A stretch of 64,000 nt of DNA. Origin: Colwellia polaris. GTDB taxonomy: Bacteria > Pseudomonadota > Gammaproteobacteria > Enterobacterales > Alteromonadaceae. Positions 16,989-48,875 of this stretch are shown here, one piece after another. Location of the stretch: positions 682,001 to 746,000 of the forward strand of contig NZ_NBOE01000001.1 in the NCBI RefSeq assembly GCF_002104515.1, in the 5' to 3' direction. The translations under genes and the position numbers were made by a program. Position 1 is the stretch's first letter, and the number at the start of each line of letters is the position of its first letter. The notes beneath the pieces were generated by a model. That model had not been told where the DNA came from. It made no database searches and saw only the letters and a list, made by a program, of their open reading frames with translations.

Positions 16989-17030
16989 CGCATAGATAAA
17001 AGTAGAAACGGTTTTAATCCGGTCACAAAA

Positions 17031-17618: not shown

Positions 17619-17629
17619 AATATTACCTC

Positions 17630-17863
17630 TTAAATGTTATGACTATTGTCATTACTGGTTTGTGCTTGCTGCAATTTAGCCGCTTGGCGTAATTTTTCTT
17701 CACGTTTAATGCGTTGAGTTATTTGTAGCTTAATTTTTTTATGGCTACTGATACTAGTAAAAATTAATAGGGCTAAGGAAAAAATACTTACGCCATAAGA
17801 TAACCAAACATAAAAGCCATAACCGCCCATATCTATAAAGGCGCTGATACTATCAAACTGCAT
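17630..17863 (-). CDS. ccmD: Heme exporter protein CcmD
   Basis: 77 aa, one membrane helix ([21 protein letters not shown]) followed by a basic coiled tail, as expected for CcmD, which helps release holo-CcmE from the CcmABC complex. It overlaps the 3' end of ccmC by 11 bp and precedes ccmE by 11 bp. Confidence 0.9.
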
Positions 17864-32095: not shown

Positions 32096-32857
32096 TCTTC
32101 ATCTGTGATATAAGCGCTGATTGTTTGTTAAACATTGCGCTTCGAAAACTTTCTGAGGTATCTAGAGAGTCTTTTACCGTTTAATGCATTGATAAAATAA
32201 TAGTTTAACATGTTGAATAATGGTGCATTCATAAAAGCATTCATGTGAATACTTTCAGGTGACATGCATTTTTAGTTTAGTTCCTACTCTGTTTTATACT
32301 TTAATTTAATCGCTCTATATGCCAGATAAAGGCGAAGTTGATACAGCTTACATTCGGTGTGATTGCCGCCTCCCAACTCTTCTTTGATGCTTAATTTAAT
32401 TTAGTCATTAGTTTTTAGTATTCAACTTCTCTTTGAAACCTCTTAATTTATTCACACCTTTATTTACTATTAAAACTACTAAAAAAACCAAAACAGTACT
32501 TCGTAGTCATTTTATTTTTTTATTATTAAATTCATCTTTATTTTTGTGGTAAGACTATTTTTAATAGTCGTTAAATCCTTTTGTATTTTATTTTTATGTG
32601 ATTAACTATCTGATATTTATGTTTTTATATTTATTTTTCTGTTGGTTTTATATCCTTGTAGGTCATTGGGTTTTAGCTTGTGGTCTTTCAATTTACTATT
32701 TAGTTACAGTTGAAATATATTCACCTCTTTCAATTTTGGTTGACATCAAAATGATTTCGAAGTACAAATATGGAAATGAAGATTATTTAAGCAACATTAA
32801 TTCACAACTAAAACAATATAAGCATTTATTTCTTTAAATGAAGGAAGGGGATTTACC
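32096..32857. other. Long AT-rich region before the TonB receptor
   Basis: No clear gene. A GTG-started frame at 32598-32837 (79 aa, hydrophobic first half, Lys/Tyr-rich second half) exists, but there is no good ribosome binding site and it matches nothing known; I regard it as doubtful. The region contains an operator-like sequence at 32496-32509. Confidence 0.5.
32496..32509. promoter_or_regulatory. Degenerate LacI-type operator upstream of TonB receptor
   Basis: GTACTTCGTAGTCA matches the locus palindrome TGACTTCGAAGTCA in 11 of 14 positions, including the central TTCG and the right half AGTCA. It lies about 350 bp before the receptor start, further away than the other three sites. Confidence 0.5.
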
Positions 32858-35242
32858 ATGAAGCCAGTTACATCAAAAAAGCTTGTTAAATCGGTTATTG
32901 CATTAGCTATTGTCAATGCATGTATAAGCCAATCTGCAATTGCAGCAGAAGAAAAAAACACAGAAGCCACTGATAAAATTGAAAGAATAATGGTTACAGC
33001 TAACCGCCATTCACAAGATCTTCAAGAGGTATCTTCTTCTATTACTGCATTGGGAGCGGATGATGTTGAACGTGCAGGAATTATTGATATAACAGGGTTG
33101 CAGCAGGTTGTTCCCGGATTAAAAGTAGGTAGCTCAGGTGGAGAAGTTAGGCCTGCTATGCGTGGCGCTAGAACGAATGAAGTAGGTGTTGCCGGCACAG
33201 GTATTGCGGAACAAATTGTCGGTATTTTCCAAGATGGTATCTATGTTCCTACAACAACTGCTGGCATGGGCGCTTTTGTTGATATTGAGCGCATAGAAGT
33301 TTTACGTGGCCCACAAGGTACGTTGTATGGCCGTAATACATTTGCCGGTAGTATTAATGTTATTACTAATCGCCCAAATATGGATGAAGTTGAAGGTAAT
33401 ATTAAAATAACTACGGGGTCATATAATCGTAGTGCGTATGAAGGTGTATTAAATATTCCTTTAGCTGATAACTTAGCAACTCGAATTGTTGTTGCTTCAG
33501 ATAGACATGACGGTTTTATTGAAAATCATGTTATAGCTGGACCTTCTGATGACTTGCGTGAAAAAAATTCATTTTATGCTCGCTCTATCACACGCTATGA
33601 GCCAAGTGATAGTTTTAACGCAACTTTTAGATTAGATTATTCGAAAAAAGACGCTAACTCTGAAGCTATTTGGGGTTATCAACAAATTGCTGGTTATTCA
33701 CTTACTGAAACTAGTCCAGGTGTTTATAACCCTAACGCAACGGTTACGCCAGGTCATATTTATCAGCGAGACGATGTAGAGCGTAATGATGAAGGTCCGT
33801 ACGATGTATATCGAAATGCAATGTCGTTAGATAAACAAGAGGCATTTTCAGCAACGGCTATTTTAGAATGGTATACCGACTCAGCTGATTTTAAATGGAC
33901 ATCTAACTATTCAGAACTCAGCGGTAAGCAGTTTTATGATAATGATTACAGCGATGGTGGTTTAGATTTTGTTGGTGGTTTTGGTCGCCAAGATGATCAA
34001 AAAACAATATCAACTGAGTTACAAGTTTCATCAAATCATGAAGGTCCGTTGCAGTGGATTGCAGGTTTATATTATTTCGATCAAGAAGCTGATTGGGAAT
34101 GGCTGTCGAGCACAGATACAACCGGCAATGGCGTAGCAGATTCAGTTGTTGTACCTAGCTGGGGTAATCCAGATCATGACCCTCATACTTCTGACTCAAT
34201 TGCTGTGTTTGGACAACTTCGTTATGAACTATCTGATGACTTACGTTTAGTAGGTGGTTTACGTTATAACAAAGATGAAAAGTCGTTCACTGGCGATACT
34301 ATTCCTGATTGGGATGACTCAGCAGTATTGTGGAAAGCGGCCCTTGAATTTGATAAGAATGATGACTTAATGTTGTATGCGTCGGCTGCCACAGGCATAA
34401 GAACAGGTGGAGCAAACGATAGTCGAGTTGTTTCTCGTGGCGCTGATCCACTTTATGACAATGAAGAAGTTATGTCTTATGAAATAGGTATGAAAAGCAC
34501 ATTGCTTGATGGTGACATGCGTTTAAATATATCGGCTTTTATTAACGAATATGATGATGTAAAAGCGCAACTATTTGCTGTTGCTTGTAGCGATACTACC
34601 ACTACAGATACTGTTTTAGAGTGTGTAGAAGCAGGCGCAACGCAGAGCTTTGAATATTATGAAAATGGTGGTGGTATTGATACCAAAGGTATTGAACTTG
34701 ATATGCAATGGTACCCTATCGATAATTTAGCCGTTACAGGTACTTTTACTTGGTTAGATGCTGAGTTCTCGGATGATTACGCAGTGGGTAATGATCAATT
34801 ACGTCCGTTATTAGGATTAGGTAATTTTGAAGGCCGTCAGGATATTAATGATAATAACAGCCAATTTAGTTTTGCTGGTTGGTCTCCTGCGATGGCACCA
34901 GAATATACGGTTGGTTTAGCGGCAAACTATGAATTTGGCTTAAGTAATGGCGGTGCGTTAATTCCACATGTTCAAATAACTTATTCAGACGAATATTATG
35001 CTTTTGATGTTAATACACCTGAAACGAAAGTTGATGCTCATGCCATTGTAGATGCACGATTAACTTGGTTAATTAACGATGATGTTCAAGTAGACTTCTT
35101 TGTTAAAAACTTAACTGATGAAGAAGTGCTAACACGTGCTGTTGTTCATTCTCAAATTGTTGATGCACAACCAATAAACTCAGTACAAGCTAACTGGAAT
35201 GATCCTCGAACTTGGGGTGCTAGCCTTAAATATACCTTTTAA
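32858..35242 (+). CDS. TonB-dependent outer-membrane receptor
   Basis: 794 aa. Signal peptide to about residue 29, a TonB-box-like stretch (IERIMVTANRH), plug domain (SSSITALGADDVERAGI, VEVLRGPQGTLYGRNTFAG-type motif), then a beta-barrel ending in the aromatic KYTF. Energised uptake across the outer membrane, often of siderophores, vitamins, sugars or organic acids. GAAGGAAGGGG precedes the start. It heads a locus of catabolic genes with a sodium symporter, so a carbon substrate is more likely than iron (inference). Transcription ends at a strong terminator. Confidence 0.92.
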   Translation: MKPVTSKKLVKSVIALAIVNACISQSAIAAEEKNTEATDKIERIMVTANRHSQDLQEVSSSITALGADDVERAGIIDITGLQQVVPGLKVGSSGGEVRPAMRGARTNEVGVAGTGIAEQIVGIFQDGIYVPTTTAGMGAFVDIERIEVLRGPQGTLYGRNTFAGSINVITNRPNMDEVEGNIKITTGSYNRSAYEGVLNIPLADNLATRIVVASDRHDGFIENHVIAGPSDDLREKNSFYARSITRYEPSDSFNATFRLDYSKKDANSEAIWGYQQIAGYSLTETSPGVYNPNATVTPGHIYQRDDVERNDEGPYDVYRNAMSLDKQEAFSATAILEWYTDSADFKWTSNYSELSGKQFYDNDYSDGGLDFVGGFGRQDDQKTISTELQVSSNHEGPLQWIAGLYYFDQEADWEWLSSTDTTGNGVADSVVVPSWGNPDHDPHTSDSIAVFGQLRYELSDDLRLVGGLRYNKDEKSFTGDTIPDWDDSAVLWKAALEFDKNDDLMLYASAATGIRTGGANDSRVVSRGADPLYDNEEVMSYEIGMKSTLLDGDMRLNISAFINEYDDVKAQLFAVACSDTTTTDTVLECVEAGATQSFEYYENGGGIDTKGIELDMQWYPIDNLAVTGTFTWLDAEFSDDYAVGNDQLRPLLGLGNFEGRQDINDNNSQFSFAGWSPAMAPEYTVGLAANYEFGLSNGGALIPHVQITYSDEYYAFDVNTPETKVDAHAIVDARLTWLINDDVQVDFFVKNLTDEEVLTRAVVHSQIVDAQPINSVQANWNDPRTWGASLKYTF

Positions 35243-35271
35243 TTTGCTAAAGGTTATTCAAGCTTAGATTT

Positions 35272-35301
35272 AAAACCGTAGATGCTTCTACGGTTTTTTT
35301 A
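35272..35301 (+). terminator. Terminator of the TonB receptor gene
   Basis: AAAACCGTAGA pairs with TCTACGGTTTT around a TGCT loop, followed by more T. Confidence 0.9.
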
Positions 35302-35799
35302 TGTCTAAAAAATGGATACCTTAAGTAGTTTGGGTATATACGGCATAATACCCAAGGGTATTTAGTTACGCTGTAATTTTATGTACCTGATGAGGTTAAA
35401 GGTTAAAGGCTAGGTCAATGATTAGGTAAAATGTTAGGTAAATGATTAGCTCAAAGACTATTTTAATCGTTAGCTTAGAAGTATTTTTGGCTATGACCAA
35501 TGGCCATTACTATTCAATATAGGCCACATTAAATTCAACGAATACACGTAATATAAGCGAGTAAAATGCCTTAATAGTTGCTAATAAGCGTTTATCTAAT
35601 TGATTGTGCTATTCGGCCTAGCAGTGTTTGTCTTGTAACCACTGCTTTAAGTAACTTATGTTACTGGTCATGAATTTACACAACTTTAAAGGGGATCAAA
35701 AAATTGGATTACTCTGCATTTTAAGCACTATAAGCAGCTTGTGTATACTTTACAGGTTAGGAGCTTGTGATGTAAACGTAGAGTAAGTTTTATAGTTGG
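35302..35799. other. Non-coding stretch between receptor and symporter operon
   Basis: No gene is visible. Around 35390-35460 there are imperfect short repeats of the type TGATTAGGTAAA, probably slippage products. Confidence 0.4.
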
Positions 35800-35839
35800 G
35801 ATAATAAAAAGTTACCTAAGCTATTAACTAAGGTAACTT
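35800..35839 (-). terminator. Terminator of the symporter operon
   Basis: AAGTTACCT (35809-35817) pairs with AGGTAACTT (35831-35839); on the minus strand the stem runs into TTTTTATTAT. A second stem, CTGAGGT/ACCTCAG, at 35853-35879 lies between it and the last gene. Confidence 0.7.
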
Positions 35840-35897
35840 AATGTTTAAAGCGCTGAGGTAGTGTTTTACTTCACCTCAGAGAGAATTTAATTAATAT

Positions 35898-36761: not shown

Positions 36762-36763
36762 GG

Positions 36764-37873: not shown

Positions 37874-37890
37874 AATATTAACTCGTTTGG

Positions 37891-39501
37891 TTAAATAAAT
37901 AGTTCAAAAGAGAACAAAAATACTAATGTGAAAATAAAGAAACCAAATAGCGCATAACATACTTTGTCTACTTTACCTGGAACTAAATACCAGCCGTTTT
38001 CTTTTTCTGCAGAGCCACTATCGGCAAACGCTTTGATTTGACCTTTAATGGTATACGGCGAGTAATCTTTTTGTTTTCCATCGATAACTAAGCTAGCAAT
38101 AATGGTTACTACCACATTAACAAACGCACCAATAGCAGCGTACCAAGGCCATGCAATATCAGTGTAAATAGCGGTGTAAGCTACTGCTAATACACCCACT
38201 AATGTGCCTACTAATAAACCACGTTCTGTCGCATGTTTAGAGAAAAAGCCTAAGCCAAACATACCTAATTGCGCACCAACAAAATACGAACCTACTTTAC
38301 TTAACACTTCTAAAATAGAGCCTGTGCTATGCAAGTGATACATAATGGCAGGGAAGATAATAATAGTGGCCCAAAAAAGAGTGAAGACACGTGAAACATT
38401 CAAATAGTGTTTGTCTGATTCATTCGGCTTGTAGTATTTTTTATAAAAATCTAGGGTTGAAACTGTAGATAATGAGTTGAATGCGGAGTCTAAACTCGAC
38501 ATTGATGCAGCCATAACCGCTGCGGCGATAATACCCATTAAACCAGGCATACCATACTGAGAAGCAAACTCTAAAATAATGGTGTTTTCATTTTCAAAAG
38601 TTTTACCTTGGTAATAGTTATAAAATAGTATCCCCATAATAATAAAGAAGAAATATACAAAGAAAGCTAAGAAACCCATTAACAAGTACGACTTTTTCGC
38701 GTCACCAATATTTTTAGCCGCTAAGGTACGCTGTACCATCATTTGGTTGGTACCATAAACCGTAATATGATAAAGCGTCATGGCTAAAATACCTGACCAA
38801 ACGGTTGTTACATTACTGAAGTCGAAATCAAAGTTAAGCGGGTTAGTTTTACCCTCTGCTTTTAGTTGAGCTAAGCTTTCCATCACGGGTGTGGTGCTAT
38901 TATCAATTAATGCATACATAATAATACCGGCACCCAACAATAATATGCCGGACTGAATTACGTCAGTCCAAATTACCGCGGTTATTCCCCCCATTACGGT
39001 GTAAATAAGCGCAATAATGGTAACAATAATAATCGAGGTTATTTCTGGAATACCTGTGATATAACTTAAAACAATAGAGGTGGCGTAAAGCACTGCAGCC
39101 GAGCTCATAGTTTGAGATATTAACCAAATACCTGAGACTAAAGCACGTGCCTTCTTGCCAAAGCGTTTTTCTTGGTATTCGTATATTGAGGCAACTCCAG
39201 CGTTGTAGAAAAATGGAAAAAAGAAGGTTATAACGGCGATAATTACTAATGGGTAATTAAGGTGTATCGCTATAACCGACAAGCCATCTTTATATGCCCA
39301 GGCTGGCGCGCCTAGAAATGTCATGGCACTAACGTAGGTAGCAATTACTGAAATACCAATTGCCCACCAGGGAGTGGTTTTTTGTCCTAGATAGAAGTCA
39401 TCAGCGGTGCTGACTTTTTTACTGATAACATAACCTAATAGCAGGTTTGCCAAAATATAAACAATTAAAATAGTCCAGTTAAGCGTTCCAAACTCTGTCA
39501 T
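37891..39501 (-). CDS. Sodium:solute symporter (SSS family)
   Basis: 536 aa with about 13-14 membrane helices. SSS family features: the N-terminal region DDFYLGQKTTPWWAIGISVIATYVSAMTFLG, the Na+ site region around GGITAVIWTDVIQ and SSLDSAFNSLSTVSTLDFYKK. It imports small organic solutes with Na+ across the inner membrane, and here probably completes the uptake route started by the TonB receptor. First gene of its operon. A perfect palindromic operator lies about 55 bp upstream. Confidence 0.92.
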   Translation of the reverse strand: MTEFGTLNWTILIVYILANLLLGYVISKKVSTADDFYLGQKTTPWWAIGISVIATYVSAMTFLGAPAWAYKDGLSVIAIHLNYPLVIIAVITFFFPFFYNAGVASIYEYQEKRFGKKARALVSGIWLISQTMSSAAVLYATSIVLSYITGIPEITSIIIVTIIALIYTVMGGITAVIWTDVIQSGILLLGAGIIMYALIDNSTTPVMESLAQLKAEGKTNPLNFDFDFSNVTTVWSGILAMTLYHITVYGTNQMMVQRTLAAKNIGDAKKSYLLMGFLAFFVYFFFIIMGILFYNYYQGKTFENENTIILEFASQYGMPGLMGIIAAAVMAASMSSLDSAFNSLSTVSTLDFYKKYYKPNESDKHYLNVSRVFTLFWATIIIFPAIMYHLHSTGSILEVLSKVGSYFVGAQLGMFGLGFFSKHATERGLLVGTLVGVLAVAYTAIYTDIAWPWYAAIGAFVNVVVTIIASLVIDGKQKDYSPYTIKGQIKAFADSGSAEKENGWYLVPGKVDKVCYALFGFFIFTLVFLFSFELFI

Positions 39502-39555
39502 ATCTATCTCTCTTTATTTTTTTACAGAAGTCTTTTTTTGTTAATTATTCATCGT

Positions 39556-39569
39556 TGACTTCGAAGTCA
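39556..39569. promoter_or_regulatory. LacI-type operator, symporter / SnoaL divergent promoters
   Basis: TGACTTCGAAGTCA is a perfect 14-bp palindrome with the central CG typical of LacI-family operators. It lies between two divergent transcription units, and the same palindrome recurs in two other divergent regions of the locus. Confidence 0.75.
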
Positions 39570-39741
39570 TTTAAACATAGCATTGTTTAAAATAATATGA
39601 AAGCAGATATTATCTAAAAAATTGATAATAAGTTAAGGTTTGCTCTAGAGTTAACTAAATTCTGTAGGAATTTGTTTGTATGTAACTAACTAATTTATTG
39701 TAATTTATAAACTTATAACAGCGCTAATATTGAGGGTAATG

Positions 39742-40752
39742 ATGACAAACGAACAGCAAAATAAAAATTTAATACTGGAGTATTACCAAGCTTTAGAGCA
39801 GTCTTCAGCGGAAACTGTTGGCGATGTTTTGACTCAATATATGAGTAATGATTGCCAATGGTATGGTGTGCATCCTTTTAACGAGCAAAAAGGCCCACAA
39901 GCGATAAATGAGGTGTTTTGGCAGCCTTTTATGCATGCTTTTAAAAATATTCAACGCAGACAAGATGTGTTTATGGCTGGTGTTAGTGGCAACGATGGTG
40001 CTAATTGGGTAACCAGTATGGGGCACTTTATGGTGCAGTTTGATAAAGATTGGTTAGGCATACCTCGCTCTGGGCGAGTGGCTATGGTGCGCTATGCAGA
40101 TTTTAACTGTATAGAAAACGGCAAAATAGTTCGTGCTGGTTTTTTCTGTGACATTATCAGCGTTATGCATCAAGTGGGGATTAATCCTTTACCTCAAGCA
40201 ACAGGTCATTCATTTATTTATCCTGGTCCGCGAACTCATGATGGTATTCAGTTAGACGACAAAGACCCTGTAGAAGCTGAGAAAACCATGGCTGTACTTA
40301 ACCAAATGATTGATGATTTATCTCAACTTAATCAAACTGGCAATGACACATATCCACCTGAAATTTTGGAAAGAACATGGGCTAAAGATATGGTGTGGTA
40401 TGGCCCTGCTGGCATTGGGGCAACTTATACTATTCCAAAATTTCAAGAGCAGCATTCGTACCCGTTTAGGCAAGGACTAAAAGATAAAGTGTTTAATGGC
40501 CATATTTGCCGATACGCAGAAGGAAACTATGCCTGTTTCTTTGGTTGGCCTAACTTAAGCAGTACACCTATTGGAGGATTTCTAGGATTACCTGGTGGTA
40601 ACATTAGGGCCGACATGCGAGTGGTTGATGTTTATCGCAGAGAGGGTGATAAGTTAATGGAAAACTGGGTGTTAATTGATATTCCTTATTGGTTAAAGCA
40701 GCAAGGTTTAGATATTTTAGAACGTAGTCGAAAAATTAATAACCCGAGTTAA
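39742..40752 (+). CDS. SnoaL/NTF2-like protein C (double domain)
   Basis: 336 aa. Two SnoaL-like halves; the second begins around residue 205 with MVWYGPAGIGATYTIPKFQEQH and ends with MRVVDVYRREGDKLMENWVLIDI, a pattern shared with proteins D and E. The first half contains the matching VAMVRYADFNCIENGKIVRAGFFCDI. The start at 39742 has AGGG five bases ahead. SnoaL-like proteins include polyketide cyclases and ester cyclases, so an isomerising or ring-forming step is possible, but nothing in the sequence proves it. Own promoter, divergent from the symporter. Confidence 0.75.
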   Translation: MTNEQQNKNLILEYYQALEQSSAETVGDVLTQYMSNDCQWYGVHPFNEQKGPQAINEVFWQPFMHAFKNIQRRQDVFMAGVSGNDGANWVTSMGHFMVQFDKDWLGIPRSGRVAMVRYADFNCIENGKIVRAGFFCDIISVMHQVGINPLPQATGHSFIYPGPRTHDGIQLDDKDPVEAEKTMAVLNQMIDDLSQLNQTGNDTYPPEILERTWAKDMVWYGPAGIGATYTIPKFQEQHSYPFRQGLKDKVFNGHICRYAEGNYACFFGWPNLSSTPIGGFLGLPGGNIRADMRVVDVYRREGDKLMENWVLIDIPYWLKQQGLDILERSRKINNPS

Positions 40753-40850
40753 GCTCGAGGTTTAGGTCTGATTAATCGGTTTAACTAGTGGCAATATTAG
40801 CAGCACTAATTTATAGGTTTAATGCTGAGTGCATTTAAATCAAAGACATT

Positions 40851-40882
40851 AAAAAAGGAAGCCTAGTAAGCTTCCTTTTTTT
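40851..40882. terminator. Bidirectional terminator between SnoaL-like C and D
   Basis: AAAAAAGGAAGC pairs with GCTTCCTTTTTTT between two convergent genes. Confidence 0.88.
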
Positions 40883-40914
40883 GATAAAGCCAGTATTCAC
40901 TGATTAATCAATAA

Positions 40915-41883
40915 TTAAGTGTTATCACCTAATTGTTCTTTCATCATAGCAAATACATCGAGACCCATTTGCATACAGATATCAATAATATCAATTGCAA
41001 CCCAGTTCTCTTTAAGTAAATCACCTTCGCGACGCCAAATATCCATCACACGTAACGATAGTTGTTTATTACAAGGCGGTAGACCTAACCAATCACCAAC
41101 ACTATGCGTGCCGTGCATATGAGGCCAACCACCTGTTGCAACATAGTTACCGTCAGATACCAAAGTGGCTTTATGGTCGACATCCCTGTCTGGAAAACTA
41201 AAAACAAAAGGCCCTTGGTGATCCCTTCTAAAACCCTCAATACCACGAGTAGTTCCTATACCCGCTGGGCCGTACCACATAAAGTCGGGGTGCCAAAAGT
41301 TCTCTAACTTCATGCTTGATAACGATTTACCGTCAAAACGACCAAGTTCGGCTAACATATCAAGTATCAGTTGCTCAGATTTTTCGGCTTCAGCTTTGCT
41401 GGTTTTTTCTCTGCTTAAACCGTCCATTGTTGATGGCGGCATAATAAGCCCACTATGGCCTAAGCTTTTTCTTAATGGATTAACGCCCACTTGGTTCATT
41501 GCATCAAGAAAATCGATAATTAAAAAACACTGTTTAATTTTATTTTCGTCAAGTTCTACTAATTCGGTAAAGCGTAAATAAAGTGTTTTATTATTCGCAG
41601 GTATTCCCCAAAGTGGCTGACTAAAGGTGCCAACAAAATAACCGGTACTGGCAATCCACTCTTTACCGTTATATTCACTTTGTACGTTAATAAATGGCTT
41701 GCGCTCTATATCGGGCAATGCGCTGACTAAAGGCTGCCAATACGAGGTTAATAATTCGTTTGTACCAAGTAAGTTATTAACAGGCGCACTAACACGCCAT
41801 GCTACTTGGTCATGAACATATGCCTCTATATTGTTAGGTGATGACTTGAGTTGTTGATACAACTTATCAATAACGGTTACCAT
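40915..41883 (-). CDS. SnoaL/NTF2-like protein D (double domain)
   Basis: 322 aa, the same layout as C and E. The second half has FWHPDFMWYGPAGIGTTRGIEG, VATGGWPHMHGTHSVGDWLGLPP and LRVMDIWRREGDLLKENWVAIDI. The first half holds the equivalent WIASTGYFVGTFSQPLWGIPANN block. Transcribed divergently from gene E, with a perfect operator palindrome between them. Proteins C, D and E are clearly paralogous by eye; they may act on related intermediates or form hetero-oligomers (inference). Confidence 0.75.
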   Translation of the reverse strand: MVTVIDKLYQQLKSSPNNIEAYVHDQVAWRVSAPVNNLLGTNELLTSYWQPLVSALPDIERKPFINVQSEYNGKEWIASTGYFVGTFSQPLWGIPANNKTLYLRFTELVELDENKIKQCFLIIDFLDAMNQVGVNPLRKSLGHSGLIMPPSTMDGLSREKTSKAEAEKSEQLILDMLAELGRFDGKSLSSMKLENFWHPDFMWYGPAGIGTTRGIEGFRRDHQGPFVFSFPDRDVDHKATLVSDGNYVATGGWPHMHGTHSVGDWLGLPPCNKQLSLRVMDIWRREGDLLKENWVAIDIIDICMQMGLDVFAMMKEQLGDNT

Positions 41884-41942
41884 AATTTTTCTCCACTAAA
41901 ATAAGTTTTACTTGAATTACTTTGAACTCAGGCTATCATTGA

Positions 41943-41958
41943 ATGACTTCGAAGTCAT
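41943..41958. promoter_or_regulatory. LacI-type operator, SnoaL D / E divergent promoters
   Basis: ATGACTTCGAAGTCAT, a perfect 16-bp palindrome containing the same 14-bp core as at 39556. It is about 60 bp from gene D and 78 bp from gene E. Confidence 0.75.
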
Positions 41959-42035
41959 CAATATTTTTATAATAGTATTTTGATAATAATATTTCGATCT
42001 CATTAGCGTATTTGTTTCATCATAGGAGAGTGTCC

Positions 42036-43046
42036 ATGCCGCAAGATTTACGTCATGCGAATAAAAAGCTAATTAAGCCGTTTAGTGAATCATTGTATAA
42101 CTTTAACGAGGTTGCTGTACGCCAAGCGATTAAGCAAATTTTTTCACCAAATGCTAAGCTGCAACTATCATTTCCTTTTGAAACCTTATCAGGCCCCGAT
42201 CGTTTATTTGAGGATGTTTATAAACCTTTGCAACGGGCAATCCCCGACCTTGAACGACGTGAAACTATTGTAATGGCAGGCACTAGTGAAGAGGGAAGCC
42301 ATTGGGTTGGGTGTTGTGGATATTACACTGGAAGCTTTGAAAGCAGTTGGTTAGATATTCCCCCAACGGGGCATCAAGTAGCTATGCGCTTTCATGAATT
42401 TTATCGTATAGAAAACGGCTTAATTGTGGAAATGCAGGCAATTTGGGATATTCCTGAAGTTATGATGCAAGCTAACGCATGGCCAATGTCGCCAAGTTTA
42501 GGGCGTGAATGGCATGTTCCTGCACCTGCAAAGCAAGACGGCTTAACGATTGAAAACAATATTGAAGTTGCTAATCGCAGTGGCAAGTTAGTGGGAGATA
42601 TGTGTAATTCATTAGGCAATTATGCAACCGGTGGTGTTGAAGCTATGCAGCTTGAAAAATATTGGCATCCAAGATGTAGTTGGTATGGTCCATCAGGCAT
42701 TGGCACTGGCCGTGGTATTAAAGGCTTTCGAAATTGGCATCAAATTCCCTTTCTAAATGCTTTGCCTAATCGTGTAGGTGATGTTGGGCAAGGCTACTTA
42801 TTTGCTGATGGCGAGTATGTTGGTTTTACGGCGTGGCCTGGTATGCACATGAAAGTAAGTGGTGATGGTTGGTTAGGTATTGCCCCCTCGAATCAAGAAA
42901 TTACCATGCGCAGCTTAGATTTTTGGCGTTGTGAAAACGGCTTAATCCGTGAAAACTGGGTACTGGTTGATTTATTACATGTTTATCATCAACTTGGCGT
43001 TGATGTATTAGGTAGAATGAAAGAGTTTAATAAAGCACGTTATTAA
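42036..43046 (+). CDS. SnoaL/NTF2-like protein E (double domain)
   Basis: 336 aa. The second half has KYWHPRCSWYGPSGIGTGRGIKG, FTAWPGMHMKVSGDGWLGIAPS and MRSLDFWRCENGLIRENWVLVDL, closely matching D and C. The first half has WVGCCGYYTGSFESSWLDIPPTG and an ENGLIVEMQAIWDI segment. The start at 42036 is supported by AGGAGAG eight bases upstream; an in-frame start 24 bases earlier lacks this. The gene ends at a long stem shared with the aldolase gene. Confidence 0.75.
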   Translation: MPQDLRHANKKLIKPFSESLYNFNEVAVRQAIKQIFSPNAKLQLSFPFETLSGPDRLFEDVYKPLQRAIPDLERRETIVMAGTSEEGSHWVGCCGYYTGSFESSWLDIPPTGHQVAMRFHEFYRIENGLIVEMQAIWDIPEVMMQANAWPMSPSLGREWHVPAPAKQDGLTIENNIEVANRSGKLVGDMCNSLGNYATGGVEAMQLEKYWHPRCSWYGPSGIGTGRGIKGFRNWHQIPFLNALPNRVGDVGQGYLFADGEYVGFTAWPGMHMKVSGDGWLGIAPSNQEITMRSLDFWRCENGLIRENWVLVDLLHVYHQLGVDVLGRMKEFNKARY

Positions 43047-43056
43047 TAGTTTCTCT

Positions 43057-43090
43057 GAATAAATAAAGTCCGAAAGGGCTTTATTTATTC
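43057..43090. terminator. Bidirectional terminator between SnoaL-like E and aldolase
   Basis: A 15-bp stem with one G-T pair (GAATAAATAAAGTCC / GGGCTTTATTTATTC) and GAAA loop between convergent genes. Confidence 0.8.
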
Positions 43091-43115
43091 ATACGATAAG
43101 GAAATGTTTAAGATT

Positions 43116-43886
43116 CTATTCTGCTGACTTTGCTATTGAGCTTTCAAAACTCTGCTGCAATTGATTAGCGCCATTAAGTAAAAAGCTATGATCAGAGCCT
43201 AATAAAAATAAGCTCACACCTGATTTTATCCAAAGTGGAAGTTCAGCCAAATTACCAACAAACATACCGCAATTTTTATTATACTTCTTAGTCGCAGCAA
43301 CAACTTTTTCAACGGCTGCTATTACATCAGGGTGGCTTGGGTCTGTTTGTTGTAATGCTACCGTTAAATCCATTCTGCCAATAAAAATACAATCAATGCC
43401 TTCTACTTGGCAAATAGCATCGATGTCGTCTATAGCCTCTAAGTCTTCAATTTGCGCTATTACGCACGTTTCATTTTTGTTGGCGGCTAGGTTGTCGGGC
43501 AATTTATGAGTGGTATAACCGGCAAAGCGTGTTGATCCAGCATAGCCTCTGCCGTCTGGTCCATAAAAACATTTTTTTACTATACGTTTAGCATGCTCAG
43601 CATTTAATACATGAGGAATAACAACCCCGTCAGCGCCTAGATCTAAAGCATTTAAAATAGTGGCATTTTCACTGTCGGGTATACGAATAATGACCGGTTT
43701 TTGTTTTGACTTTGCCGCGAGTACACAAGTGTCTAAATCTGCTCTGTCAAAAGGGGCATGTTCAGCATCTAAACATAAAACATCTAAATTAGTATGGGCT
43801 AATACTTCAGTATTATGAAAATGTGGCGTTTTGATAAATGTACCGAGTAAGGGCTTTTTTGTTGCTAATGCTTGTTTAAGGTTCAT
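43116..43886 (-). CDS. HpcH/HpaI-family class II aldolase
   Basis: 256 aa. Metal-dependent aldolase of the HpcH/HpaI/citrate-lyase-beta family, which cleaves 2-keto-3-deoxy acids or 4-hydroxy-2-oxo acids to pyruvate plus an aldehyde. Seen: the catalytic His in CLDAEHAPFDRADL, Arg in VIIRIPDSE, the metal ligands in AQIEDLEAIDDI and IGRMDLTVAL, and GADGVVIPHV. Last gene of the operon HisD-like - LacI - hydrolase - aldolase. It is probably the carbon-carbon cleavage step that feeds pyruvate to central metabolism (inference). Confidence 0.88.
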   Translation of the reverse strand: MNLKQALATKKPLLGTFIKTPHFHNTEVLAHTNLDVLCLDAEHAPFDRADLDTCVLAAKSKQKPVIIRIPDSENATILNALDLGADGVVIPHVLNAEHAKRIVKKCFYGPDGRGYAGSTRFAGYTTHKLPDNLAANKNETCVIAQIEDLEAIDDIDAICQVEGIDCIFIGRMDLTVALQQTDPSHPDVIAAVEKVVAATKKYNKNCGMFVGNLAELPLWIKSGVSLFLLGSDHSFLLNGANQLQQSFESSIAKSAE

Positions 43887-43901
43887 TTTATATCCCTTAT
43901 G

Positions 43902-44627
43902 TTAAGTTGGTGTATGTTGTTGAGTTGAACCCAACGAATACCATTGAATTAATGCTTGCGATACTTTCTCTGCTTGTTCTAAAGGCGAGAAGTGCGCGCA
44001 TTGTTCAAGTAATACTAATTCGCTAGTCGGTAATGCTTTATGCATCATTAGTTGGTGTTTAACAGGGCAAATTTTATCTTCTAGACCACTAATAATCAGT
44101 ATGTTCGCTTTAAGGCTTTGTAGAACTTCTAGTGAGTCTGGGCGATCTTCTATTGCCATTGCTTGCGCAGAAAAACATTTTTTACCAAGCGATAAAGCCA
44201 TATCTAGAATAATTTTTTGATATTCTGCTTTTTGTTGGTGAAGGTAATTAGGCATAAATGTATTTTCGATCAATAGCCTAAGCTGACCAGCATTGGCTTG
44301 CTTAATATGCTCAACTCTTCCTGCTTTTCTTTCGGGAAGATCGGCATGGCAATTTGAATTAATTAACGCGAGCTTAGCAATTAGATGTGGGTGAGTTTTC
44401 GCGACTTGGGCTGCAACAATACCGCCCATAGAGAAACCAATAATAGCGCATGGTTGATCACCAGTTGCTTTTATTACGCTTGCTGCCATTTCTGGCAAAG
44501 TTGCTTCATCGGTAAATTGTACAACTGATATCTGATGACTATATTGGCTGAGTTGAGTTATTTGATGACTAAACATGGCACCTGTACATAAGGTGCCGGG
44601 TAAAATTAATATGGGCAAAGTGGGCAT
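43902..44627 (-). CDS. Alpha/beta hydrolase
   Basis: 241 aa. Catalytic triad visible: nucleophile in IIGFSMGGIVAAQ, Asp in ISGLEDKICP and His in LEQCAHFSPLEQ. The oxyanion region is LPILILPGTLCTGAMF. It resembles enol-lactonase or carboxylesterase-type enzymes, so opening of a lactone or ester intermediate is plausible. It lies 15 bp after lacI and 15 bp before the aldolase. Cytoplasmic. Confidence 0.85.
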   Translation of the reverse strand: MPTLPILILPGTLCTGAMFSHQITQLSQYSHQISVVQFTDEATLPEMAASVIKATGDQPCAIIGFSMGGIVAAQVAKTHPHLIAKLALINSNCHADLPERKAGRVEHIKQANAGQLRLLIENTFMPNYLHQQKAEYQKIILDMALSLGKKCFSAQAMAIEDRPDSLEVLQSLKANILIISGLEDKICPVKHQLMMHKALPTSELVLLEQCAHFSPLEQAEKVSQALIQWYSLGSTQQHTPT

Positions 44628-44642
44628 AACAACATAACCTAG

Positions 44643-45650
44643 TTACGGTCGCTTTACTGAATTCCCTTTAATTAAGGTACCCGTTAATACACGAGCTTCA
44701 GGCGGCGAGTCAGGGTTTTCTATGTGTTCTATTAACATGTCTACAGCTGCTTTTACCAATTGCTCTAACGGTTGTTTAACGGTAGTTATTTGGTAACTTT
44801 GCCAAAATGATGAAGCGATCCCATCGAAGCCGACAACAGACATATCGTTTGGAATATGAATGTTGTGTTTCTCTCTTATTTCGTCAATTACGCCAATCGC
44901 CATGGTATCGTTACTGCAAATTACCGCGTCTGGCGCAGGATTTTTTTTCAACCATTGGGCAATACAGTTTCTACCCGATTGATACGAATAGTCGCCATAA
45001 AGTACAGGCACATTTGGTTCCCCAGACTTTTGCAATAAATCAAGCGCGATTTCGCGACGTTCATTGGCAACATCAGAGTCTTTAGGGCCTGAAAGGACTA
45101 AATAAGATTTAGGATTATTTAATTTTAATTCGGCAAGCAGTTGCTTAATGCCTTGTTCATGATTACAACAAACGGTATTGGTTGAAGCATCAGGAACATT
45201 GCGGTTATAGAGCACTACGGGTATTTTATGTTGCTCAAATTGCGCCAAACGTTGGCTTTCAAAATGAGCAGCAAGTGCAATAACGCCATCAACTTGGAAG
45301 GTCCAGATTTGTTCAAATAACTCATCTACACCTTCAGCGTCATCTAAAGTAAATAATAAAACTCGCTTATTACGAGCCGCAAGTTGTTTGCTTACTTGCG
45401 AAAGTACTTCAGGGTAGTTTTCATTCGCACGAGACGAAACGATAACCGCCACCATACCAGACTGTTTAGTAATCAGCATTCTCGCGATGGCATTAGGTCG
45501 ATAACCCATTTTATTCGCTACGGCCGTTACTTTTTCACGAGTTTTTGCCGAGACACTTAAGCCCGGTCTAAATACTCGTGAAACAGCTGATTGAGATACG
45601 CCCGCTTCGCGAGCGACATCATAAGAAGTAACCTTTTTATTTTTAGTCAA
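44643..45650 (-). CDS. LacI-family transcriptional regulator
   Basis: 335 aa. N-terminal helix-turn-helix and hinge: TSYDVAREAGVSQSAVSRVFRPG...TREKVTAVANKMGYRPNAIAR. The rest is the periplasmic-binding-protein-like sugar/ligand domain (VDGVIALAAHFES, PDAVICSNDTMAIGVIDEI, ISVVGFDGIAS-type segment). It is embedded in a catabolic operon, three bases after the HisD-like gene. The recurring TGACTTCGAAGTCA palindrome is the best candidate for its operator, so the regulator would control its own operon and the whole locus. Confidence 0.92.
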   Translation of the reverse strand: MTKNKKVTSYDVAREAGVSQSAVSRVFRPGLSVSAKTREKVTAVANKMGYRPNAIARMLITKQSGMVAVIVSSRANENYPEVLSQVSKQLAARNKRVLLFTLDDAEGVDELFEQIWTFQVDGVIALAAHFESQRLAQFEQHKIPVVLYNRNVPDASTNTVCCNHEQGIKQLLAELKLNNPKSYLVLSGPKDSDVANERREIALDLLQKSGEPNVPVLYGDYSYQSGRNCIAQWLKKNPAPDAVICSNDTMAIGVIDEIREKHNIHIPNDMSVVGFDGIASSFWQSYQITTVKQPLEQLVKAAVDMLIEHIENPDSPPEARVLTGTLIKGNSVKRP

Positions 45651-45653
45651 TGT

Positions 45654-46928
45654 TTACCCTTTATATCTTCTTAAACGAATATCAGCTTGCTCCTTATGGC
45701 CAGCAAACCCTTCAACAGCACAAAGTCTAGAACAATATTCACCAACAACAACCGATGCTTCTTCTGTAGCGCTTTGAAATGTACAGGTTTTAATAAACTT
45801 ACCAACCCATAGTCCGCCAGTATAACGTGCCGCCTTACGAGTTGGAAGTGTATGGTTTGTACCAATACACTTATCACCATAAGATACGTTTGTTTCTGGG
45901 CCTAAGAAAAGTGCACCAAAGTTACGCATGTTCTCTTTAAAATAGGGGATATTTTCAGTCATAATTTGTACGTGTTCAAAAGCTAAGTCGTTAGCAACTT
46001 CAATCATTTCTTCGTAGGTATCACAAACAATCACTTCACCGTGATCTTTCCAAGCAGCTCCTGCAACTTCACCTGTTGGCAAAATAGTTAATTGTCTTTC
46101 TACTTCAGCCATAGTATCGCGTGCCAGTTTTTCACTATTTGTTAATAATATCGCTGGAGATGTTGGACCATGCTCAGCTTGACCCAGTAGGTCAGCAGCA
46201 CACAATTCTCCATCGACACTTTCATCGGCAATAACTAATGTTTCTGTTGGACCCGCAAATAAATCTATACCTACACGACCAAATAGTTGGCGCTTTGCTT
46301 CAGCAACAAAAGCATTGCCAGGGCCAACAATCATATCAACAGGGGCAATTGTTTCTGTTCCAATAGCCATGGCAGCTATTGCTTGTACGCCACCAAAGCA
46401 ATAAATTTCGTCAGCACCAGCTAAATCCATTGCAACAACAATGGCAGGAGATGGTTTGCCATTAAAAGGTGGAGCCGCCGCAATAACACGTTTTACACCT
46501 GCAACTTTAGCGGTAACTACACTCATGTGAGCAGAGGCGACTAACGGATATTTACCACCTGGCACATAACAACCCACACTTTCCATTGGTATATGCTTAT
46601 GACCAAGTATAACGCCAGGTAATGTTTCTACTTCCACGTCTTTCATCGAATCACGTTGAATTTGAGCGAAATTACGAACTTGCGTTTGCGCCCATTTAAT
46701 ATCTTCTATGATACTGTCATCGAGTTCTTCGTAGCAGGCTTTAATTTCTTTCTTTGTTAGTCTGAATGACTTCGGATTCCACTTATCGAACGTTTCAGAG
46801 TATTTTGCAACGGCTTTATCACCATCTTGTTCAATATCTTCAAGAATGTTTTCTACTGTTGTTTTAACTGATTGTAAAAAATCTTTTTTTTCTTCTTCTT
46901 GCTTGCCTTTCTTTAGGTATTTAATCAT
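45654..46928 (-). CDS. HisD-family alcohol dehydrogenase (HpsN-like)
   Basis: 424 aa. Histidinol-dehydrogenase fold with the zinc and catalytic residues: [12 protein letters not shown] (Gln, His), [15 protein letters not shown] and [14 protein letters not shown] (late His). The sequence fits the non-histidine subgroup that includes sulfopropanediol 3-dehydrogenase HpsN ([30 protein letters not shown]), not biosynthetic HisD, and no his genes are nearby. It should oxidise a primary alcohol to a carboxylate with NAD+. Sulfolactate lyase genes are absent, so the substrate need not be a sulfonate. First gene of its operon, with an operator-like site about 93 bp upstream. Confidence 0.85.
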
Positions 46929-47020
46929 TTCAATATCTCCAGTTTATTTGATTTTAATTTTGACTTAATTAATAAAGATTCGACTTATTAACTTGAACTT
47001 ATCTAAATCCTACGTAATAA

Positions 47021-47034
47021 TGACTTCGAATGCA
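47021..47034. promoter_or_regulatory. LacI-type operator, HisD-like / SDR divergent promoters
   Basis: TGACTTCGAATGCA matches the palindrome TGACTTCGAAGTCA in 12 of 14 positions; the left half and central TTCGAA are intact. It lies between the two divergent operons. Confidence 0.65.
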
Positions 47035-47058
47035 ATAATTGATTTTAGGATAAATGTT

Positions 47059-47799
47059 ATGAGCTTTAATGAAAACTTATTCACAGGTAAAACGATATTA
47101 ATTGCTGGTGCAGGTAAAGGTATTGGTTTGGGCTGTGCGGTTATGGCGGCTAAATATGGCGCTAATGTTATTGCGGTAGCACGAACAAAAAATGATTTAG
47201 ATAAACTAACCGAACTTTATCCTGAAAATATAACACCTTGGGTGATGGACGTAACAAGTGATGCTTTTTATAAAAGGTTACGCGAATTACCCACATTAGA
47301 TGGTTTAGTTAATAATGCCGGCATAAATCGTGTTGGTGCTATGGAAGAGCAAAGCAGTGAAAATATTGATGCGGTGATCGATTTAAATATTCGAACACTT
47401 TATAAAATATCTCAAGCTGCGATTACACCGATGAAGCAAAGCAAATATGCTTCTATTGTAAATATGTCATCTCAAATGGGGTTTGTCGGCTCACCCGGTC
47501 GAACTTTGTATTGTATGAGTAAGCATGCGGTAGAGGGCGTTACAAAAGCGATGGCTGTTGAGTTAGCCGAGTATAATATTCGCGTAAATACTGTCGCTCC
47601 TACCTTTGTATTAACCCCAATGACTGAGCCAATGTTTGAAGACGAAACGTTTAAAAACTTTGTTTTTAATATGATCCCCCTCGGCCGCTTAGCCAAAGTA
47701 GAAGATATCGCTAATAGCTGCACCTTTCTATTAAGTGACTTAGCGTCGATGATCACAGGCACTAGCATTAAAGTTGATGGCGGTTGGACGGCACATTAA
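47059..47799 (+). CDS. Short-chain dehydrogenase/reductase
   Basis: 246 aa classical SDR. Seen: AGAGKGIGLG nucleotide motif, NNAG (LVNNAGINR), catalytic Ser in NMSSQMG, Tyr-x3-Lys in YCMSK, and the end GTSIKVDGGWTAH. The start at 47059 is chosen for the TTAGGA eight bases ahead; an upstream in-frame start would place the operator inside the gene. It resembles sugar-alcohol or L-xylulose/gluconate-type SDRs. Probably a hydroxyl/keto interconversion in the pathway. Followed by the bicupin gene. Confidence 0.87.
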   Translation: MSFNENLFTGKTILIAGAGKGIGLGCAVMAAKYGANVIAVARTKNDLDKLTELYPENITPWVMDVTSDAFYKRLRELPTLDGLVNNAGINRVGAMEEQSSENIDAVIDLNIRTLYKISQAAITPMKQSKYASIVNMSSQMGFVGSPGRTLYCMSKHAVEGVTKAMAVELAEYNIRVNTVAPTFVLTPMTEPMFEDETFKNFVFNMIPLGRLAKVEDIANSCTFLLSDLASMITGTSIKVDGGWTAH

Positions 47800-47876
47800 T
47801 CACTCAGTAGTAAGTAATAGACATAAAACATTAATTTTAATGACTCAACGAAAGTGAATATAAGAGGATAGAAAAG

Positions 47877-48875
47877 ATGACATTAGCAGATAGACTGATT
47901 AGATATGATGATTTAAATCCATGTACCAATGCCTTTATTGACACGCGCAGCCCAGGCAGTGATAAAAAAGAAAACTTTACACTTATCGGGCCTGGTGTAG
48001 CTGAAAATCCTGACCAACATATACACATTTCGATACCGCATGGTTTTAACATTGGTGGCGCTCGCCAACCTGCCGGCTGCTTAAATTCGCAACATAGCCA
48101 TTTAACTGAAGAATTTTTTGTTATACATAGCGGTACATGGGCTTTTATGAGTGGCGTAAATGGTGATGATGGTAAAGTCATACTAAATGAAGGTGATATT
48201 ATTTCTATTCCAACTGACATTTTCCGTGGTTTCGAAAATGTGGGTGAGGGCAGTGCTTATTTATATGCTGTTTTAGGCAGTGATGACCCAGGTAACGTGT
48301 TATGGGCACCTCAAGTTTTTGAGCTTGCTGAAAAATATGGTTTGATCCTGCTTGATGATGGCAGCTTAGTAGATACTACCTTAGGAGAAAAAGTACCAGA
48401 AGGTAAGCATCCTATGCCTGTTACTTCAGCCGCGCAAATTGCAGAGCATCGTATTGTTGGCGATGAGGAAATGGAGTCAATTGTACAAAGAACTGATACT
48501 TTTTCATGGTCAAAAAATACTGGCTTAGCACTGTTTAATGGCGTTGAAGAAGTCGCATTAGTTGGCGATAAAAATATGAGTGAAGATTTACCCGCAAGTA
48601 AGTTGAGCTGGTCGCATGGTTTTGTCGTGCGAGGGTTAAAATTACTAAGCGATGCGATAGTGCCTGAGCATATTAGATACGAGGAAGAGGTTATTTTTGT
48701 TCAGCAAGGGCAGCTAGATATAACGGTAGATGGCGAAACACTTACATTATCTAAAGGCGATACTTTTACAACTCCGATTGAGTCGGTACGTAAGTTTGAA
48801 CAAAAAGGACAAAGCGATTGTATTTTATATATTACACGTCGAAATGATTATCCTAAAGCACCAAAGTTTATTTGA
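47877..48875 (+). CDS. Bicupin protein
   Basis: 332 aa with two cupin domains. The first has a complete metal motif: HSH followed by Glu (QHSHLTEEFFVIHSG) and the second motif GDIISIPTDIFRGFEN. The second domain (EEVIFVQQGQLDITVDGETLTLSKGDTFTTP) lacks the HxH pair, so probably only one metal site is active. Such proteins can be dioxygenases, isomerases or sugar epimerases. It lies 77 bp after the SDR and is likely in the same transcript. Function in the locus is unknown. Confidence 0.78.
   Translation: MTLADRLIRYDDLNPCTNAFIDTRSPGSDKKENFTLIGPGVAENPDQHIHISIPHGFNIGGARQPAGCLNSQHSHLTEEFFVIHSGTWAFMSGVNGDDGKVILNEGDIISIPTDIFRGFENVGEGSAYLYAVLGSDDPGNVLWAPQVFELAEKYGLILLDDGSLVDTTLGEKVPEGKHPMPVTSAAQIAEHRIVGDEEMESIVQRTDTFSWSKNTGLALFNGVEEVALVGDKNMSEDLPASKLSWSHGFVVRGLKLLSDAIVPEHIRYEEEVIFVQQGQLDITVDGETLTLSKGDTFTTPIESVRKFEQKGQSDCILYITRRNDYPKAPKFI

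What the first reader, a model, noticed from the sequence alone, without database searches (positions are those of the whole stretch)
32496..48875. Candidate undescribed catabolic locus with outer- and inner-membrane uptake and its own regulator
One block holds a TonB receptor, an SSS symporter, five SnoaL/NTF2-like proteins, an HpsN-like alcohol dehydrogenase, an SDR, a bicupin, an alpha/beta hydrolase, an HpcH/HpaI aldolase and a LacI regulator. I know of no named pathway with this set. Enzyme families suggest oxidation of a primary alcohol to an acid, keto/hydroxyl interconversion, lactone or ester opening, and aldol cleavage to pyruvate. The role of the NTF2-like proteins is the main unknown. 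The substrate could be a sugar acid, a polyol, a sulfonate or an algal metabolite.
Basis: partly seen in the sequence, partly recalled or inferred. Interest (0 to 1): 0.85.

Follow-up and report, generated by a model that had tools for sequence, protein, structure and literature searches.

The report
Bacterial sunscreen-compound (MAA) degradation cluster, candidate
This is a real, widely shared and apparently jointly regulated set of bacterial genes that most likely takes up and eats mycosporine-like amino acids, the natural sunscreens of algae and corals, a diet for which I found no described genes.

Summary
In detail: 13 genes at 32858-48875 belong to the families named. They recur together: of 84 places found through tandem-SnoaL genes, 50 carry at least four of five core partners. 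A LacI-type palindrome marks the promoters; the whole genome holds two sites at 2 mismatches or fewer, both here.

The sulfonate reading fails: the HpsN-like enzyme lacks the sulfonate-recognising His in 51 of 51 members.

[quoted passage not shown] In 7 of 84 places serine dehydratase, threonine or glycine-cleavage genes adjoin cluster genes; 113 of 114 control proteins hit no place. In three genomes an operator-like site lies between serine dehydratase and a SnoaL gene. Of 15 minimal SnoA loci, 12 hold serine dehydratase or Kbl-threonine dehydrogenase. A review cites Vibrio harveyi as stripping Ser/Thr from MAAs. MetE-like protein, HpsN-like oxidase, bicupin and aldolase fit breakdown of the MAA core.

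Against: no MetE-like ortholog found in this genome; 0 of 13 further loci had the amino-acid genes; transporters look sugar-type; nothing is biochemically shown.

The parts
32495..32510 (+). operator-like site, 3 mismatches, upstream of the TonB receptor
32858..35242 (+). TonB-dependent receptor (outer-membrane uptake)
   Evidence: Pfam PF00593 E 1.2e-40, PF07715
35898..36761 (-). NTF2-like protein NTF2e
   Evidence: PF12680 just above cut-off; ortholog 49% in L021
36764..37873 (-). NTF2-like protein NTF2d (369 aa)
   Evidence: PF07366; its cluster is present in 63 of 84 places
37891..39501 (-). SSS sodium:solute symporter
   Evidence: PF00474 E 5.7e-51; nearest solved relatives 5nv9 and Na/glucose symporters
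39555..39570 (.). LacI-type operator-like site TTGACTTCGAAGTCAT between SSS and SnoA
39730..40752 (+). SnoA, SnoaL protein of the tandem group; proposed Ser/Thr-releasing imino-MAA hydrolase
   Evidence: minimal clusters with sdaA or kbl-tdh
40915..41883 (-). SnoB, tandem SnoaL protein
   Evidence: PF07366 in two stretches
41943..41958 (.). perfect palindrome ATGACTTCGAAGTCAT between SnoB and SnoC
42012..43046 (+). SnoC, tandem SnoaL protein; main query of the comparative work
   Evidence: AlphaFold2 pLDDT 87.5; Lsd19 among top fold matches
43116..43886 (-). HpcH/HpaI-type aldolase; proposed pyruvate-releasing aldolase
   Evidence: PF03328, below the HpaI/GarL equivalog cut-offs, solved aldolases
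43902..44627 (-). alpha/beta hydrolase, PcaD-like but below cut-off; possible (methyl) esterase or lactonase
44643..45650 (-). LacI-family regulator
   Evidence: PF00356, PF13377
45654..46928 (-). HpsN/HisD-like NAD alcohol dehydrogenase, motif GKYPL
   Evidence: PF00815; nearest PDB 8v35 E 1e-113; second, higher-scoring PF00815 gene elsewhere
47020..47035 (+). operator-like site ATGACTTCGAATGCAA upstream of the proposed SDR start
   Evidence: same letters in L028, L029, L022, L053, L060, L095
47059..47799 (+). SDR oxidoreductase (ORF listed from TTG 46993; start moved to ATG 47059)
   Evidence: PF13561; sequence
47877..48875 (+). bicupin; proposed ring-cleaving dioxygenase; His73, His75, Glu79, Arg117 invariant in 25 of 25
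   Evidence: PF07883; AlphaFold2 pLDDT 91.4; nearest folds quercetinase YxaG and oxalate decarboxylase; residues

Best explanation
The locus is a LacI-regulated catabolic regulon for mycosporine-like amino acids (MAAs), the UV-absorbing cyclohexenimine compounds of algae, cyanobacteria and corals. The TonB receptor and SSS symporter bring the compound in. NTF2/SnoaL proteins hydrolyse the imine/enamine C-N bonds and release Ser, Thr and Gly; SnoA is proposed for the Ser/Thr step, giving mycosporine-glycine, then 4-deoxygadusol. The HpsN-like enzyme oxidises the ring CH2OH to a carboxylate. The O-methyl group is removed by the MetE-like protein where present, or perhaps later as a methyl ester by the alpha/beta hydrolase. 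The bicupin cleaves the resulting enediol ring with O2: C7H8O6 + O2 = C7H8O8, the composition of 4-carboxy-4-hydroxy-2-oxoadipate. The HpcH/HpaI aldolase (an RraA-like protein in many relatives) splits it to pyruvate and oxaloacetate. Shown by the calls: gene content, conservation, shared operator-like sites, Ser/Thr/Gly gene linkage in part of the relatives, HpsN motif change. Inferred: the substrate, every reaction step and the binding of LacI to the sites. The roles of SDR, the hydrolase and the individual SnoaL paralogues are open.
For: Conserved unit in 50 of 84 places. Operator-like palindrome: 4 sites in the window against 0.26 expected; the only two in the genome at up to 2 mismatches are here; kept in relatives, one copy before the MetE-like gene of L021. 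Ser/Thr/Gly genes: sdaA in 5 of 84 places, glycine cleavage in 3 (L034, L081, L106), tdh-kbl in 1 (L035), 7 places in all; they adjoin a SnoaL gene, except in L106 the MetE-like gene. Control: 1 place hit in all by 114 E. coli proteins. Operator-like site between sdaA and a SnoaL gene in L030, L034 and L035 (one mismatch in L035, where the other arm reads NTF2d-kbl-tdh). Minimal SnoA loci: of 15, 9 have sdaA and 3 kbl-tdh, including Vibrio europaeus; review passage on Vibrio harveyi. MetE-like gene in 41 of 84 places and a FrmA-like dehydrogenase next to or near SnoC in 5 related MAGs fit a methoxy group. Aldolase: HpcH only 14, RraA only 23, both 1, neither 12 of 50.
Against: No MetE-like ortholog rang in this genome; its one PF01717 hit lies on another contig. 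No Ser/Thr/Gly gene in the window locus, and none in 13 further SnoA loci of family f241. 77 of 84 places lack them too, within the stretches read; glyA, ltaE and frmB hit no place. The minimal clusters come mostly from Vibrio and one other genus, and no operator-like site of this type was found in the four of them scanned. The reversed control pattern occurs 8 times per strand in the genome at 2 mismatches, so such a 16-mer is not rare in itself. SBP and SSS resemble sugar-type transporters. An enolase-superfamily (mandelate-racemase-type) gene recurs in 7 places, which suits a sugar acid. The bicupin has Arg117 where a fourth cupin His is expected. RraA found no solved relative. Sarcosine oxidase adjoins the Vibrio pelagius cluster. 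The SDR has no assigned step.
Confidence: 0.63

Rival explanations
1. Catabolism of another conjugate of Ser, Thr or Gly (an amino-acid glycoside, Amadori-type compound or N-methylglycine derivative). SnoaL proteins would release the amino acid and the rest would degrade a polyol-like remainder.
For: Same Ser/Thr/Gly linkage; sugar-type transporters; sarcosine oxidase beside the Vibrio pelagius cluster.
Against: Does not by itself explain a MetE-like protein, FrmA-like neighbours and a bicupin. No glycoside hydrolase stood out among the recurrent clusters, but these were not all family-searched.
Confidence: 0.17
2. Catabolism of a sugar acid, methylated sugar or polyol by oxidation, lactone opening and aldol cleavage, with the SnoaL proteins as isomerases or dehydratases.
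For: LacI regulator, sugar-type ABC/SSS transporters, HpcH/HpaI nearest GarL/HpaI; an enolase-superfamily gene, a type that includes sugar-acid dehydratases, in 7 places; PF04909 amidohydrolase in 21 of 84 places.
Against: Serine dehydratase and kbl-tdh next to the same operator-like site and in 12 of 15 minimal SnoA loci are unexplained.
Confidence: 0.12
3. 2,3-dihydroxypropanesulfonate (DHPS) or other sulfonate degradation, with an HpsN enzyme.
For: Nearest solved relatives of the dehydrogenase are sulfopropanediol/R-DHPS dehydrogenases. Histidinol dehydrogenase itself, without the His, is reported to have some DHPS activity (PMC11131964, passages).
Against: The HpsN motif G-R-Y-A/S-H with its sulfonate-binding His (PMC11382572, passages) reads GK[FY]P[LM] in 51 of 51 and in all 68 instances that a pattern search found in the fetched loci (that pattern required K or R after PGG).
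Confidence: 0.02
4. Housekeeping histidinol dehydrogenase plus unrelated neighbours, i.e. no functional unit.
For: Scores above the NCBIfam hisD cut-off.
Against: A second, higher-scoring PF00815 gene lies on contig C28; co-occurrence and shared operator-like sites.
Confidence: 0.01

Closest known systems
HpsN DHPS-3-dehydrogenase (PF00815)
   Same: Equivalents of Glu318, His319, Asp352, Lys353, His359 conserved; nearest solved structures
   Different: Sulfonate-recognising His126 is Leu or Met in 51 of 51 cluster members
Bacterial hydrolysis of shinorine/porphyra-334 to mycosporine-glycine and 4-deoxygadusol (Vibrio harveyi, as cited in PMC3083659, passages)
   Same: Same proposed first reactions; Vibrio genomes carry SnoA with transporters and serine dehydratase
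   Different: No gene is named in the passages seen; V. harveyi itself was not examined here
Protocatechuate/gallate 4,5-cleavage lower pathway (LigK-type CHA aldolase; recalled)
   Same: Proposed end: 4-carboxy-4-hydroxy-2-oxoadipate cleaved to pyruvate and oxaloacetate; HpcH or RraA-like proteins and a PF04909 amidohydrolase in relatives
   Different: Non-aromatic ring, no extradiol dioxygenase seen; RraA gave no solved relative
Lsd19 / MonBI-MonBII NTF2-type epoxide hydrolases
   Same: Top fold matches of SnoC; paired NTF2 domains (recalled for Lsd19)
   Different: Whole-length TM only about 0.3; polyether biosynthesis, not catabolism
Quercetinase YxaG (bicupin dioxygenase)
   Same: Top fold match (TM 0.58, 13% identity) and weak sequence match
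   Different: Arg117 where the fourth metal-ligand His is expected; C-terminal cupin residues not conserved

Membership tests
HpsN (DHPS-3-dehydrogenase) | Motif G-R-Y-A/S-H with sulfonate-binding His126 | tested here: not met
   GK[FY]P[LM] in 51 of 51; motif from PMC11382572 passages
HpsN / HisD superfamily | Catalytic Glu-His pair and Zn-site residues | tested here: met
   E318, H319, D352, K353, H359 conserved in 95% or more of 51
Histidinol dehydrogenase of histidine biosynthesis | Best or sole genomic copy | tested here: not met
   Higher-scoring copy on contig C28
LacI-controlled catabolic regulon | Cluster-encoded LacI regulator and a shared CG-centred palindrome in the promoters | tested here: met
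   binding itself not tested
Quercetinase-type bicupin dioxygenase | 3-His-1-Glu metal site (recalled) | tested here: not met
   H73, H75, E79 invariant in 25 of 25, Arg117 at the position I read as the fourth ligand
HpcH/HpaI aldolase | PF03328 over its cut-off | tested here: met
   PF03328 E 4.4e-30; below the GarL/HpaI equivalog cut-offs
MAA catabolism | Genes for degrading Ser, Thr or Gly linked to the locus | tested here: inconclusive
   Linked in 7 of 84 places and in 12 of 15 minimal SnoA loci; not in the window nor in 13 loci
MAA catabolism | Enzymatic turnover of an MAA | not testable with these tools
   needs protein or growth assays

The most novel reading that the evidence does not exclude
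This is the first gene-level catabolic pathway for mycosporine-like amino acids: tandem NTF2 proteins are a new class of C-N hydrolases that strip Ser/Thr/Gly from the chromophore, and an HpsN-like oxidase, a MetE-like demethylase, a bicupin ring-cleaving dioxygenase and an aldolase take the core to pyruvate and oxaloacetate. It occurs in Proteobacteria, at least one Chloroflexi genome (L056) and, in a variant, a haloarchaeon.
Probability: 0.55. Interest if true: 0.92.

Novelty: new variant of a known kind. Interest (0 to 1): 0.8.

Why it matters
MAAs are among the widespread natural sunscreens of sunlit water (recalled), yet no gene for their breakdown turned up in the searches listed. If right, the cluster explains part of their removal from the sea, links them to Ser/Thr/Gly and C1 metabolism, gives a marker for metagenomes, and supplies enzymes for making or editing MAAs. 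Its presence in culturable Ruegeria, Colwellia and Vibrio makes it testable. It would also give a function to proteins now annotated only as 'ester cyclase' or 'nuclear transport factor 2 family protein'.

Tried and rejected
DHPS/sulfonate: rejected on the motif. Housekeeping HisD: rejected. SnoaL_4 family PF13577: no hit in the genome. MetE-like ortholog in this genome: not found. The amidohydrolase has only a 30% homologue, on contig C12. A Ser/Thr/Gly link in the f241 SnoA loci: looked for and absent, 0 of 13. MetE versus hydrolase as mutual substitutes: both 27, hydrolase only 9, MetE only 9, neither 5 of 50, so not exclusive. Operator-like sites in L081, L050, L186, L147, L146, L151, L189: none; in L106 one site, at SnoAB and not at the gcv genes. 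RraA against solved structures: no hit. Paper searches for prior art: listings only; passages were read in three papers. One search listed 5 papers, none with a title on bacterial MAA genes. The library lacks preprints and most subscription papers.

Cuts and dropped rows: searches used coverage and identity cuts (at least 40% identity and 60% coverage; at least 28% identity for eight promiscuous families). One search used no identity cut; its gcvT hits are 35-36% identical and would fail the cut, while sdaA, gcvP, gcvH, tdh, one kbl and five frmA hits pass. Not counted: FrmA in L084 (34%), Kbl in L072 (35%), and the non-target hits ygfF 2, amiD 1, poxB 1; 23 of its 33 references hit nothing. 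In one search control proteins gave 2 hits in 32 loci, both ABC ATPases. The 15 minimal loci are those with SnoA, no HpsN and at most transporters and regulator; L227 is one more SnoA without such neighbours. The half sites used were taken from sites already seen, L034 among them. L021+L022, L024+L025 and L026+L027 count as one place each.
Full report
What is there. The window lies at G000:C1:682001-746000 of a 4.43 Mb genome in 28 contigs. The best named match of SnoC is in Colwellia hornerae (81% identical; near copies of the window's own genome may be left out there). The 13 genes lie between LptF/LptG-type genes and thiamine genes, with a few other ORFs on each side. All 13 have Pfam support: TonB receptor; two NTF2-like genes and an SSS symporter; three SnoaL genes of the tandem group (called SnoA, SnoB, SnoC here); HpcH/HpaI aldolase, alpha/beta hydrolase, LacI regulator and HpsN-like dehydrogenase in one run with gaps of 3 to 15 bases; SDR and bicupin. 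I take ATG 47059 as the SDR start rather than the listed TTG 46993 (sequence).

It is a unit. With four anonymous genomes this gives 84 places. Protein clusters recur in: SnoC-type 82, NTF2d 63, LacI 52, SDR 50, HpsN-like 50, bicupin 50, SnoA/B 48, solute-binding protein 46, single NTF2 46, MetE-like 41, hydrolase 39, amidohydrolase 21, HpcH 17, SSS 13, TonB receptor 9 of 84. By a second, BLAST-based assignment 50 of 84 hold at least four of five core genes. Of these 50, 36 have the ABC binding protein only, 11 SSS only, 1 both, 2 neither. HpcH only 14, RraA only 23, both 1, neither 12. Many places are related Roseobacters, two (L071, L073) are one genome, and a number of the other 34 lie on short contigs, so these are not independent events. 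Across drawn genomes the SnoC query rings in 10 of 229 of the class and 19 of 295 of the order, some of them weakly; a Vibrio-type SnoA in 9 of 369 of the class at E 1e-30 and 18 of 398 of the phylum at E 1e-60.

It looks jointly regulated. The palindrome ATGACTTCGAAGTCAT lies between SnoB and SnoC, one mismatch away between SSS and SnoA, and with three mismatches before the TonB receptor and the SDR: four hits against 0.26 expected in the window. In the whole genome only the first two occur at up to two mismatches; the reversed control pattern occurs 8 times per strand. Of 13 relatives' loci scanned, L028, L029, L021, L022, L053, L060, L095 and L034 show such sites, L021 one before its MetE-like gene; L051, L063, L077 and L091 show a related palindrome twice; L070 none. 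In L063, L077 and L091 the pair lies at or in the SnoAB/ATPase divergent promoter.

Not a sulfonate locus. The nearest solved relatives of the dehydrogenase are DHPS dehydrogenases. In the paper on CpHpsN (PMC11382572, passages seen) His126 of the motif G-R-Y-A/S-H recognises the sulfonate. Here the motif is GK[FY]P[LM] in 51 of 51 and in 68 of 68 instances of a pattern search in the fetched loci, while the catalytic Glu-His pair and other site residues stay. So the chemistry (four-electron oxidation of a primary alcohol) is likely kept and the substrate changed. Weak DHPS activity cannot be excluded: histidinol dehydrogenase itself is reported to show some (PMC11131964, passages).

The amino-acid link. 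33 E. coli reference proteins were compared with the ORFs of the 84 places. Serine dehydratase sits in 5 (L030, L034, L035, L050, L052), glycine-cleavage genes in 3 (L034, L081, L106), threonine dehydrogenase with Kbl in L035: 7 places in all. A FrmA-like dehydrogenase lies next to or near SnoC in 5 related MAGs. GlyA, LtaE and FrmB hit none; 23 of 33 references hit nothing. Of 114 further control E. coli proteins, 113 hit no place and one hit one. The Ser/Thr/Gly genes adjoin a SnoaL gene, or in L106 the MetE-like gene. In L030, L034 and L035 an operator-like site lies in the promoter between sdaA and a SnoaL gene (one mismatch to the site set in L035); in L035 the other arm is NTF2d-kbl-tdh. 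The same script found no such site in 200 kb of E. coli, nor in seven other loci tested; in L106 its one site is at SnoAB. The site set was built from sites already seen, L034's included.

Minimal clusters. In Vibrio-type genomes and two other families of the order, SnoA (54-59% identical to the window's) stands with transporters and mostly a LacI gene. Of 15 such loci, 9 have sdaA, 3 kbl-tdh, one a weak ltaE-like gene (29%), one a gcvP further off, one none; L227 is another with none. Vibrio europaeus shows it with RefSeq names: L-serine ammonia-lyase, sodium:solute symporter, MFS, nuclear transport factor 2 family protein, porin, LacI. Ensifer adhaerens has tdh beside SnoA. Eight of the nine sdaA cases are Vibrio or one genus whose SnoA is 94% identical to V. 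europaeus's, so lineages are few. In 13 further phylum-sample loci (family f241) no such gene is near.

Reading. Ser, Thr and Gly are the amino acids of shinorine and porphyra-334 (recalled). [quoted passage not shown] The other genes fit the remaining core (structures and reactions recalled, steps inferred): CH2OH oxidation by the HpsN-like enzyme; O-demethylation by the MetE-like protein, whose His243, Cys245 and Cys343 are conserved; O2 cleavage of the resulting enediol by the bicupin, C7H8O6 + O2 = C7H8O8; this product would be 4-carboxy-4-hydroxy-2-oxoadipate, cleaved by an HpcH- or RraA-type aldolase. Several SnoaL paralogues per locus would match the several amino-acid substituents of MAAs.

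Structures. AlphaFold2 gave SnoC at pLDDT 87.5 with two NTF2-like halves and the bicupin at 91.4. Foldseek ranks Lsd19 and MonBI-MonBII hydrolases, then SnoaL-type cyclases, first for SnoC, with whole-length TM near 0.3, and quercetinase YxaG and oxalate decarboxylase for the bicupin. The bicupin keeps His73, His75, Glu79 and Arg117 in 25 of 25; the missing fourth His leaves dioxygenase function unproven.

What speaks against. No MetE-like ortholog rang in this genome, no Ser/Thr/Gly gene lies in the locus, and 77 of 84 places lack them in the stretch read. The transporters look sugar-type. An enolase-superfamily gene (PF13378, PF02746) recurs in 7 places (one member family-searched), as a sugar-acid pathway might have. 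The SDR and hydrolase have no firm step; sarcosine oxidase near the Vibrio pelagius cluster leaves room for other glycine derivatives. The recurrent clusters were not all family-searched. No substrate has been shown. I found no description of the pathway in the held library, which lacks preprints and most subscription journals.

Noticed in passing
L191 (Halobellus limi plasmid) 11596-17989: A haloarchaeon carries five ester cyclases, a cobalamin-independent methionine synthase II family protein and, nearby, an aminomethyltransferase, an ABC importer and an aldolase: an archaeal variant of the cluster without an annotated histidinol dehydrogenase in the stretch.
   Followed up: partly
L187 (Vibrio pelagius plasmid) 1-13017: Sarcosine oxidase subunits lie beside the SnoaL/ABC cluster; could mean N-methylglycine or methylamine-type substrates.
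   Followed up: no
L190 (Paracoccus alcaliphilus plasmid p77023) 1832-18112: The cluster sits on a 77 kb plasmid next to relaxase and IS5 genes, a hint of horizontal spread.
   Followed up: no
L027 1350-2576, L071, L074, L083, L084, L090, L098: An enolase-superfamily gene (mandelate-racemase type) recurs in 7 places near the cluster.
   Followed up: partly
L024 14674-16956: A sulfatase gene (PF00884) lies inside the cluster region of one genome.
   Followed up: partly
window 50145-51716: A single 523-aa ORF matches both phosphomethylpyrimidine kinase (ThiD) and thiamine monophosphate synthase (ThiE): a ThiD-ThiE fusion next to ThiG and a DAO-family oxidoreductase.
   Followed up: partly
window 30961-31371: 136-aa ORF without any Pfam match.
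   Followed up: no
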